From Gallionella sp. (GTDB lineage: Bacteria > Pseudomonadota > Gammaproteobacteria > Burkholderiales > Gallionellaceae), in NCBI GenBank assembly GCA_028707275.1, contig JAQTUP010000002.1, positions 619,198 through 683,197 of the forward strand: a DNA stretch of 64,000 nucleotides, read 5' to 3'. The stretch's first letter is position 1. Each line of letters starts with the position of its first letter. Position numbers and translations under genes: made by a program. This document shows positions 8,435 to 57,499 of the stretch, one piece after another. Below the pieces are notes generated by a model. The model searched no databases. It was not told the DNA's origin and saw only the letters and a list, made by a program, of their open reading frames with translations.

Positions 8435-8521
8435 AAAAAATCAGAAGAAAAGCGGGCAGCACTTGTATTTTTAAGTGTGTTGTGGAAGGTTGCCACGAAG
8501 CCGCCACCCGCGCCTTCTTCT
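8435..8521 (-). terminator. probable regulated terminator of the B12 riboswitch
   Basis: On the minus strand AGAAGAA (8521-8515) and GCGGGTGGC (8511-8503) pair with GCTGCCCGC (8460-8452) and TTCTTCT (8449-8443), and a run of six T (8440-8435) follows at once. The hairpin lies between the aptamer and btuB, as expected for a transcription-terminating expression platform. Pairing was done by eye. Confidence 0.7.
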
Positions 8522-8534
8522 GTTCATAGGCAAG

Positions 8535-8752
8535 AAGGCCGGTATCCGGGCTCGCAAGTCTTGATTTGTCGCCTTCCCATGATGAATCACAGTGACTTAA
8601 TGACAAATCCGCACTCACTTACCGTTGCGGGGGCAGCTCAGGCTTGGTTGAGCATCGCTGGAGATAAATCCGCATCGCGAATCCACCTGACTTCCAGCGC
8701 AGAACAACGCACCTGCTTCCCGTTTAACATGACTGCAAAGCAGTCTTGCACC
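8535..8752 (-). promoter_or_regulatory. cobalamin riboswitch aptamer
   Basis: Read on the minus strand, the region holds the conserved cobalamin-riboswitch elements in order: AACGGGAAGCAGGTG near the 5' side (about 8725-8710), GCTGCCCCCGCAACGGTAA, a B12 box GTCACTG, GGGAAGGC, and GAGCCCGGATACCGGCC at the 3' side (ending at 8537). It lies about 145 bases upstream of btuB in the correct orientation. Family knowledge: adenosylcobalamin binding turns the downstream genes off. Confidence 0.95.
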
Positions 8753-8837
8753 TTAAAGCTGGGCGCACTTTAACACATGCATCCGGCTCATCGACGCGCT
8801 GCTCTTTAAAATAATGAGTACAATTCCCTGTTGACAT

Positions 8838-9474: not shown

Positions 9475-9657
9475 AAGCGTTGTCCCCTGCGGTGTTCGTC
9501 AGGCTCATATATTCTTTGAACCAAGTAACTAACCAGGTCGCGACTCAAACGCTGCTGTTGTGAATGTCCCTTGCGGATGATCCTGATGCGGCAGGGAAGC
9601 GACCCTCTTGAACCCTACGGTTCGAGATGCTGGGTCAACGGCACAGGCGGGGGACTT
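9475..9657 (+). ncRNA. ssrS: 6S RNA (SsrS)
   Basis: The ends pair (TTGTCCCCTGC near 9480 with GGCGGGGGAC near 9650) around a large open central region, the promoter-mimicking fold of 6S RNA. Characteristic stretches GCGGTGTTCGTCAGGC at the 5' side and CTTGAACCCTACGGTTCGAG at the 3' side are present. It binds sigma-70 RNA polymerase and damps transcription in stationary phase. Position directly after zapA is the classical one. Ends are approximate. Confidence 0.88.
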
Positions 9658-13665: not shown

Positions 13666-13741
13666 TGGTGCCGCCTATCGGATTCGAACTGATGACCTAC
13701 CGCTTACAAGGCGGTTGCTCTACCAACTGAGCTAAGGCGGC
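13666..13741 (-). tRNA. tRNA-Thr (anticodon TGT)
   Basis: A complete cloverleaf: acceptor GCCGCCT/AGGCGGC, D arm GCTCAGTTGGTAGAGC, anticodon loop CTTGTAA (anticodon TGT), T arm with GTTCGAATC, discriminator A and encoded CCA (13668-13666). It is second in a two-tRNA operon. Confidence 0.97.
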
Positions 13742-13765
13742 TTTTGAAACATATCCACCACAAAA

Positions 13766-13841
13766 TGGTGGGTCGGGCGAGATTCGAACTCGCGACCAAC
13801 GGATTAAAAGTCCGCTGCTCTACCGGCTGAGCTACCGACCC
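13766..13841 (-). tRNA. tRNA-Lys (anticodon TTT)
   Basis: A complete cloverleaf: acceptor GGGTCGG/CCGACCC, D arm GCTCAGCCGGTAGAGC, anticodon loop CTTTTAA (anticodon TTT), T arm GAGTTCGAATCTC and encoded CCA (13768-13766). First gene of the operon, 24 bases before tRNA-Thr. Confidence 0.97.
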
Positions 13842-56375: not shown

Positions 56376-56405
56376 TTGACATTGCCGGACACTCACCCTG
56401 ATAAT
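56376..56405 (+). promoter_or_regulatory. strong sigma-70-like promoter before the leader peptide
   Basis: TTGACA (56376-56381) and GATAAT (56400-56405), or TGATAA one base earlier, with 17-18 bases between. Transcript start is expected at about 56412, the A of the peptide ATG. Confidence 0.75.
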
Positions 56406-56411
56406 CTGCGC

Positions 56412-56513
56412 ATGAACGCAAAACCCGCATTCCATCTGGTCCGAGTCCGCCCCTGTGCGCATCTGCGCGCGGTGTGGCATGTCTCGTTCGTGGCCCGGGG
56501 AGTCAGCGTTTAA
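56412..56513 (+). CDS. possible leaderless 33-residue leader peptide upstream of the EamA gene
   Basis: A 33-codon ORF (MNAKPAFHLVRVRPCAHLRA and on to ARGVSV) starts at the predicted transcription start, without a ribosome-binding site. It is rich in Arg, Val, His and Ala and ends 25 bases before a strong intrinsic terminator. The layout promoter, tiny ORF, terminator, transporter gene fits attenuation, but I do not recognise the peptide. Alternatively the transcript is a small RNA with a chance ORF. Confidence 0.45.
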   Translation: MNAKPAFHLVRVRPCAHLRAVWHVSFVARGVSV

Positions 56514-56538
56514 GTTGTAATCGCTTTTGTTTTTTCCT

Positions 56539-56569
56539 CAAGGCCACGGATTTCCCCCGTGGCCTTTTT
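56539..56569 (+). terminator. intrinsic terminator / attenuator before eamA
   Basis: AAGGCCACGG pairs with CCGTGGCCTT around ATTTCCC, followed by TTTTT. It sits 49 bases upstream of the transporter ATG and so would stop transcripts from the 56376 promoter unless suppressed. Confidence 0.85.
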
Positions 56570-56617
56570 TGTCGTGTGCCGCAAGGCTCGACGACGGCAG
56601 TTTGACAGGAGAGCAAT

Positions 56618-57499
56618 ATGTACTTACCCGCCGCCTTCATTTCGGTGATTCTGATCTGGTCTACCACGCCACTGGCCATTAAGTGGAGTGCGCTGGGGGC
56701 AGGCTTCAGCTTTGCGGTATTTTCGCGCATGGCGATAGGCATCGTGCTGTGTGCGGCGGTTCTGATGCTGTTTCGCATCGGTTTTCCGCTGCACCGCCGC
56801 GCGCGTATGGCCTATCTGGCCGGGGGCCTGAGCATGTTCTGCGCCATGTCGCTCTCCTACTGGTCGGCGCAATTTGTCAGTTCGGGCATGATCTCGCTGC
56901 TGTTCGGTCTGTCTCCTCTGGTGACCAGCATGGGGGCGATGGTGTGGCTCAAGGAAGAAAGGCTCACGCCTGGCAAGCTGGCGGGTATGCTGTTCGGCCT
57001 GCTCGGCCTGGCACTGGTATTTCGCGGCAGTTTCAGCCTGGGCGCGAGCGCCTCTGTCGGCCTGCTGGCATTGTTCGCGGCGGTGGTGTCTCAGTCGCTG
57101 GGACTGGTCTGGTTAAAGTGCATCAATGATGACAGTCCGCCGCTGGCCATGACACTGGGCACGCTGATCGTCGCCCTGCCGCTGTTTTTCGCCGCCTGGT
57201 GGATGGCCGACGGACACCTGCCCGATGAAATGCCCGCGCGTGCCGTGGCGGCCACGGTGTATCTTGGCGTATTCGGTTCGGTGCTGGGGTTCGCCTTGTA
57301 CTACTATCTCATCAAACACATGGAGGCGGGACGGATCGCGCTCATCACGCTGGTCACACCGGTGCTGGCCTTGCTGCTGGGGCACAGCCTGAACAATGAA
57401 ATCGTGCTGCCGCAGGTCTGGATGGGGGCGGCGAGTATTTTGTTCGGTCTGTGTTTGCACCACTGGAGCGCCAGATGGGCTGGTATTTTCTCCCGATAA
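56618..57499 (+). CDS. EamA/DMT-family transporter
   Basis: A 293-residue inner-membrane exporter with ten helices in two EamA halves; ILIWSTTPLAIKWSALG begins the first half and LLALFAAVVSQSLGLVWLKC the second. AGGAG 6 bases before the ATG. DMT exporters carry amino acids, nucleobases or other metabolites; substrate unknown. Probably controlled by the leader region described above. Confidence 0.9.
   Translation: MYLPAAFISVILIWSTTPLAIKWSALGAGFSFAVFSRMAIGIVLCAAVLMLFRIGFPLHRRARMAYLAGGLSMFCAMSLSYWSAQFVSSGMISLLFGLSPLVTSMGAMVWLKEERLTPGKLAGMLFGLLGLALVFRGSFSLGASASVGLLALFAAVVSQSLGLVWLKCINDDSPPLAMTLGTLIVALPLFFAAWWMADGHLPDEMPARAVAATVYLGVFGSVLGFALYYYLIKHMEAGRIALITLVTPVLALLLGHSLNNEIVLPQVWMGAASILFGLCLHHWSARWAGIFSR

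What the first reader, a model, noticed from the sequence alone, without database searches (positions are those of the whole stretch)
56376..56617. Leaderless 33-codon peptide and terminator ahead of an EamA exporter
A strong promoter, an ORF whose ATG is at the predicted transcript start, and a strong terminator 49 bases before the exporter gene. The layout fits translation-linked attenuation, where the exported compound or ribosome stalling on the Arg/His-rich peptide decides read-through.
Basis: partly seen in the sequence, partly recalled or inferred. Interest (0 to 1): 0.6.

Follow-up and report, generated by a model that had tools for sequence, protein, structure and literature searches.

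The report
Tryptophan-codon leader switch controlling a transporter
A tiny gene translated from the very first base of its RNA sits in front of a membrane transporter gene, and a conserved tryptophan codon in it, placed just before an RNA switch, probably lets the ribosome decide whether the transporter is made.

Summary
In detail: promoter 56376-56405, ORF whose ATG (56412) falls on the predicted +1, strong terminator, then an EamA (DMT) transporter gene with no other visible promoter. It is conserved far beyond the window. In the window's family, 60 of 73 genomes with this EamA gene carry the leader. In a class-wide sample, 75 of 99 homologue upstream regions show a leaderless ORF plus terminator, against 0-3 of 99 in shuffled sequence. 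The peptides barely align, but one residue persists: an in-frame Trp codon in 68 of 75 leaders (shuffles: mean 34, maximum 44). A segment that can pair with the terminator's 5' arm lies 6-20 nt after a Trp codon in 44 of 75 (shuffles 5.7) and, in the closer set, 56 of 71 (shuffles 3.5). In the window that antiterminator is predicted at -23.4 kcal/mol, the terminator at -18.6. Best reading: a leaderless, ribosome-mediated transcription attenuator with one Trp control codon. A ribosome stalled at Trp permits read-through; completed translation terminates. Nothing here is experimental; the transporter's substrate and direction are unknown.

The parts
56376..56405 (+). sigma-70-type promoter, TTGACA-18-GATAAT
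   Evidence: same placement in relatives
56412..56513 (+). leaderless 33-codon leader ORF (MNAKPAFHLVRVRPCAHLRAVWHVSFVARGVSV) with TAA
   Evidence: ATG 5-9 nt after the -10 in all 75 picks (6 nt in 39)
56466..56477 (+). codons R-A-V-W of the conserved R-x-[VA]-W motif; TGG = 56475-56477
   Evidence: coordinates; R(-3) 55/60, W(0) 55/60 in the anchored closer set
56489..56502 (+). antiterminator 5' segment (CGTGGCC, then GGGGAG), 11 nt after the Trp codon
56534..56548 (+). antiterminator 3' segment (TTCCTC, then GGCCACG), shared with the terminator 5' arm
56540..56570 (+). intrinsic terminator hairpin and T-run
56618..57499 (+). EamA/DMT-superfamily transporter gene, 293 aa
   Evidence: orthologues

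Best explanation
A leaderless, ribosome-mediated transcription attenuator of the trp type with a single Trp control codon. Transcription starts at the A of the AUG and a ribosome begins at the RNA's 5' end. If it stalls at the Trp codon (charged tRNA-Trp scarce), the segment 11-13 nt downstream stays free, pairs with the 5' arm of the terminator, and RNA polymerase reads into the EamA gene. If translation runs on to the stop codon, the ribosome covers that segment and the terminator forms. Shown by sequence: layout, conservation, Trp placement, exclusive antiterminator and terminator pairings. Inferred: leaderless initiation, stalling at Trp, the direction of the response, and that the transporter handles Trp or a related compound.
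For: 60 of 73 family EamA orthologues have the leader; 75 of 99 class-wide versus 0-3 shuffled. In-frame Trp in 68 of 75, shuffles mean 34.1, max 44. Antiterminator partner 6-20 nt after a Trp codon in 44 of 75 (shuffled 5.7) and 56 of 71 (shuffled 3.5). Trp-to-partner spacing varies less than Trp-to-stop: sd 2.7 vs 5.1 nt, n=61, and 5.8 vs 6.8, n=52. GTGG is invariant in 56 of 56 aligned leaders although G000 and G122/G123/G124/G126 read it in another frame, so it is held as RNA. TGG is an island between freer wobble positions. Gene contexts differ while leader and gene stay together.
Against: Only one Trp codon as a rule, not a tandem run. In the closer set 5 of 60 anchored leaders lack it (C, C, G, V, L), as does G145; 7 of 75 class leaders have none. 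R, P and A are also held in the close family, which a pure Trp counter does not need. The untranslated-state 1:2 pairing is not above chance (63/70 vs 1158/1400 shuffled). The antiterminator helix shows little variation, so covariation cannot support it. Turning on an exporter in Trp shortage is odd; an uptake role would fit but is untested. 24 of 99 class regions and 13 of 73 family orthologues lack the layout.
Confidence: 0.66

Rival explanations
1. Nascent-chain arrest: a sparse motif P-x-A-x-x-R-x-[VA]-W stalls the ribosome inside the tunnel when a small ligand (free Trp, another substrate or a drug) is bound, exposing the same antiterminator.
For: In the closer set P(-8), A(-6), R(-3) and V/A(-1) have low pN with free pS; peptides are basic and poor in D/E.
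Against: P, A and R positions do not persist class-wide, only W does; C-terminal residues change frame in some species; W-to-stop distance is loose.
Confidence: 0.17
2. General translation-speed sensor: any slowdown or ribosome-targeting drug leaves the ribosome before the switch and turns on an efflux pump, as in bmrCD-type attenuation.
For: Layout works with any stall up to the Trp codon; transporters are typical targets (PMC4191407, title and abstract start seen).
Against: Does not explain why one Trp codon is kept at a set distance from the antiterminator.
Confidence: 0.1
3. Arginine attenuator, as suggested by the Arg content and the frequent CGA codon.
For: R 2.07-fold enriched; R(-3) in 55/60 and CGA at -11 in 30/60; Arg-rich leaderless leaders precede argD elsewhere.
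Against: R is present in nearly any shuffle of these ORFs (75 vs 71.5 expected) and has no fixed place class-wide; some f15 leaders replace R(-3) by H or Q.
Confidence: 0.05
4. Independent small RNA or small protein gene whose terminator merely precedes the transporter.
For: Own promoter and terminator.
Against: Leader and EamA gene stay adjacent across shifting contexts; the gene has no other visible promoter; the leader is degenerate where EamA is broken (G007) and has a weak promoter where EamA is missing (G179).
Confidence: 0.02

Closest known systems
trp-type ribosome-mediated attenuators, in particular the leaderless trpL of Sinorhizobium meliloti (PMC7298713, passages read)
   Same: Transcript begins with the leader ATG; Trp codons decide between antiterminator and terminator.
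   Different: Usually several consecutive Trp codons in a short peptide before trpE(G); here mostly a single Trp in a ~31-residue basic peptide before an EamA transporter. No such leader found before trpE in 19 loci.
bmrCD and mef/mel attenuation of efflux pumps (PMC4191407, PMC4335068; search listing only)
   Same: Translated leader and terminator decide read-through into a transporter.
   Different: Those respond to ribosome-targeting drugs; here a Trp codon is the conserved feature.
Bacillus subtilis ycbK / rtpA (PMC11255114, passages read)
   Same: A Trp-regulated gene set: TRAP sites in trpG, trpP and ycbK transcripts; rtpA operon controlled by uncharged tRNA-Trp. That YcbK is an EamA-type transporter in that operon is recalled, from no call.
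   Different: TRAP and T-box there; a leader peptide here; no homology tested.
TnaC (PMC8429421, search listing only)
   Same: Leader peptide with a critical Trp (detail recalled).
   Different: Free Trp arrests at the stop codon and counters Rho (recalled); here the terminator is intrinsic and Trp spacing is to the antiterminator.

Membership tests
Ribosome-mediated (trp-type) transcription attenuator | Short leader ORF conserved as coding sequence upstream of the structural gene | tested here: met
   Codon-level constraint at a few positions; layout in 60/73 and 75/99. Translation itself not testable here.
Ribosome-mediated (trp-type) transcription attenuator | Mutually exclusive antiterminator and terminator | tested here: met
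   By pairing and energy only; no covariation.
Ribosome-mediated (trp-type) transcription attenuator | Run of control codons for the regulated amino acid | tested here: not met
   A Trp codon in 68/75, but one Trp in 46, two in 20, three in 2, none in 7; usually not tandem.
Ribosome-mediated (trp-type) transcription attenuator | 1:2 (anti-antiterminator) hairpin | tested here: inconclusive
   Present in the window's fold but not above shuffles, no conserved ORF structure.
Ribosome-mediated (trp-type) transcription attenuator | Downstream gene serves the sensed amino acid | not testable with these tools
   Substrate unknown; no solved relative by sequence.
Riboswitch or other RNA of Rfam | Match at gathering score | tested here: not met
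   No match in 56376-56617.
EamA/DMT transporter family | EamA Pfam domains above cut-off | tested here: met
   PF00892, 106.6 bits vs 28.2, two stretches; below every NCBIfam equivalog cut-off.
TnaC-type arrest leader | Fixed Trp-to-stop distance with conserved terminal residues | tested here: not met
   W-to-stop 24-51 nt class-wide and less fixed than W-to-partner.

The most novel reading that the evidence does not exclude
A widespread family of leaderless, single-Trp-codon attenuators, present across Gammaproteobacteria in the GTDB sense (class inferred), marks an uncharacterised EamA/DMT subfamily as a tryptophan-linked transporter, possibly one that brings Trp or a precursor into the cell, with the ribosome acting as its Trp gauge.
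Probability: 0.5. Interest if true: 0.65.

Novelty: new member of a known kind. Interest (0 to 1): 0.55.

Why it matters
EamA-type transporters are numerous and most have no known substrate; a conserved control codon is a direct clue. It would give a Trp-responsive attenuator outside the trp operon, conserved across many families with a peptide free to drift except at one codon, which makes the minimal requirements of ribosome-mediated attenuation and of leaderless initiation testable. I found no description of it: searches gave none, within a library that lacks most subscription journals.

Tried and rejected
Arg/His stalling: weak against shuffles. 1:2 hairpin: not above chance. RNAalifold on 9 leaders suggested pairing of the LRA codons with GTGGC, but this vanished in the 56-sequence alignment. 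Out-of-frame TGG as a control (68 in frame, 44 and 15 in the other frames) is weak because xTG-Gxx codon pairs are common; shuffles were used instead. Weak hits of model R1 in other families: 4 of the 12 read (L092, L094, L096, L097) have a leader-like ORF but lead into argD or a transglutaminase-like gene; the rest are terminators or tRNA neighbours. trpE upstream regions: no such leader. Structure model of EamA: pLDDT 44, so no fold search. Plasmid collection: no match.

Rows dropped before counts: from the 77 leader hits, G064b and G080b (not EamA), G007 (broken gene, no promoter/ATG found), G153 and G070 (start region changed) and G112 (contig end) were left out, giving 71. In the class set G650, G702 and G559 look like spurious picks but were kept in all counts. 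Of 107 class genomes with a homologue (G000 included), 99 upstream regions were read: 19 loci plus 80 fetched stretches (one genome, G764, gave two).

Full report
What is there. The window (G000 contig 14) carries TTGACA-18-GATAAT at 56376-56405, an ATG 6 nt later at 56412, a 33-codon ORF ending with TAA at 56513, a terminator at 56540-56570 and an EamA gene at 56618. A second TTGACA near 56601 has no -10 before the gene, and one search lists no promoter between terminator and gene. In relatives the T-run can lie about 20 nt from the transporter ATG, too close for another promoter. The transporter is a two-domain EamA protein that falls below every curated equivalog cut-off in NCBIfam and has no solved relative detectable by sequence.

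Conservation in the family. Among 61 relatives, 12 genomes hold an EamA orthologue of at least 67% identity (the window's own included). Nine of these have promoter, leaderless ORF and terminator (one, G005, was misread by the script and is read correctly). A covariance model of the nine matched 90 of 158 family genomes at E <= 0.01; many of the weaker matches are terminator-only. Setting the strong matches against the 73 of 158 genomes with the EamA gene, 60 have the leader and 13 do not. Of the 13, G024, G076, G078 and G111 keep a terminator-like hairpin without the ORF, G087 has an ORF without Trp, and the other eight show no such leader. Strong matches outside the family (12 used) all precede EamA. 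Upstream neighbours differ between genomes while leader and EamA stay together. Where EamA is split (G007) no leader promoter or ATG is found, and where EamA is absent within 1.5 kb (G179) the leader has a weak promoter. Record titles of four relatives include 'Gallionellales bacterium' and 'Nitrosomonadales bacterium'; that the family is Gallionellaceae is inferred.

What the ORF conserves. In 75 of 77 leader loci a promoter and ATG could be paired; the gap is 6 nt in 39, 7 in 22, 8 in 9, 9 in 4 and 5 in 1 (three or so of these picks are artefacts). In 60 leaders anchored on the core, R(-3) is kept in 55, W(0) in 55, A(-6) in 48 and P(-8) in 43, with free wobble positions. Taken whole, codons -16 to 0 have pN/pS 0.85 in frame, against 0.97 and 0.90 in the other frames; only those few positions are constrained. 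The ORF has no conserved secondary structure in 56 aligned leaders. The segment GTGG[CT]C is kept even where the reading frame over it has shifted, as in the window itself, so it is held as RNA.

The switch. In 68 of 71 leaders the predicted fold pairs the terminator's 5' arm with this segment over at least 5 bases. At 6 or more pairs it is 65 of 71, against 352 of 1420 shuffles. In the window CGUGGCC/GGCCACG plus GGGGAG/UUCCUC give -23.4 kcal/mol (z -3.95), against -18.6 for the terminator. Folded whole without a ribosome, the leader shows the terminator. The segment begins 11-13 nt after the Trp codon in 51 of 61 leaders. A ribosome paused with Trp in its A site should leave it free, and a ribosome at the stop codon should cover it; the footprint sizes are general knowledge, not from a call.

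The wider class. Homologues at 36-52% identity occur in 107 of 369 genomes of the class sample (the window's own included in the count). Of 99 upstream regions read, 75 contain promoter, ATG 5-9 nt after it, a short ORF and a terminator. Six shuffled sets gave 0-3 of 99, the reverse strand 3 of 99. With promoters of at least 9/12 the counts are 48 against 0. These peptides hardly resemble one another, yet 68 of 75 contain Trp, mostly at codon 17-20, where shuffled ORFs give 34.1 on average and 44 at most; it is the most over-represented residue (z 8.6; M 5.7, K 5.0, H 3.3, R 2.3). The antiterminator partner begins 6-20 nt after a Trp codon in 44 of 75 (shuffled 5.7); the same test on the closer set gives 56 of 71 (shuffled 3.5). 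This placement, more than peptide similarity, is the evidence that Trp is the control codon.

Sign and function. Stall at Trp gives antitermination, so Trp limitation should raise expression. That fits an uptake or exchange role better than export, but EamA proteins are mostly annotated as exporters, so substrate and direction stay open. Trp is missing in a minority (5 of 60 anchored plus G145; 7 of 75), so some lineages have lost or changed the response. R, P and A in the close family leave room for a nascent-chain contribution.

Comparison. It works like a trp attenuator, and leaderless Trp leaders are known: in S. meliloti the rnTrpL 5' end is the trpL ATG (PMC7298713, passages). It lacks the run of control codons and a demonstrable 1:2 hairpin. 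No Rfam family matches it and no NCBIfam or Pfam family matches the peptide. Papers checked: PMC7298713, PMC11255114 and PMC2965389 by passages; others only in search listings.

Noticed in passing
L150, L154, L156, L157, L158, L161, L163, L164, L167, L168; L092, L096, L124: In other families of the order, argD (acetylornithine aminotransferase, my reading of the sequence) is often preceded by a leaderless, Arg-rich ORF, often with tandem CGA/CGC codons (e.g. LRRRR, SRRRRH), and a terminator: candidate leaderless arginine attenuators. About 10 of the 21 closest argD loci read show it; a paper search found no description.
   Followed up: partly
L124 (G080, window's genus): G080 has both an EamA leader and a separate leader with a similar terminator before an argD-like gene.
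   Followed up: partly
L097 (G234): Leader-like ORF (MNTRYEQFVRYAARALSVQDVLWHEPVQARLPDRWPCCP) and GGCCACGG terminator before a transglutaminase-like gene (the gene name is my reading, not a search).
   Followed up: no
L076 (G179), L067 (G007): Leader left without an intact EamA gene (absent, or split), with a weak or missing promoter: apparent joint decay.
   Followed up: partly
window 8520-8770, 9481-9657, 13669-13841: Rfam matches: cobalamin riboswitch, 6S RNA and two tRNAs.
   Followed up: no
L040, upstream of EamA: An ORF that reads like DAHP synthase (my reading of the sequence, not searched) lies directly upstream of the leader in one genome; not conserved elsewhere.
   Followed up: no
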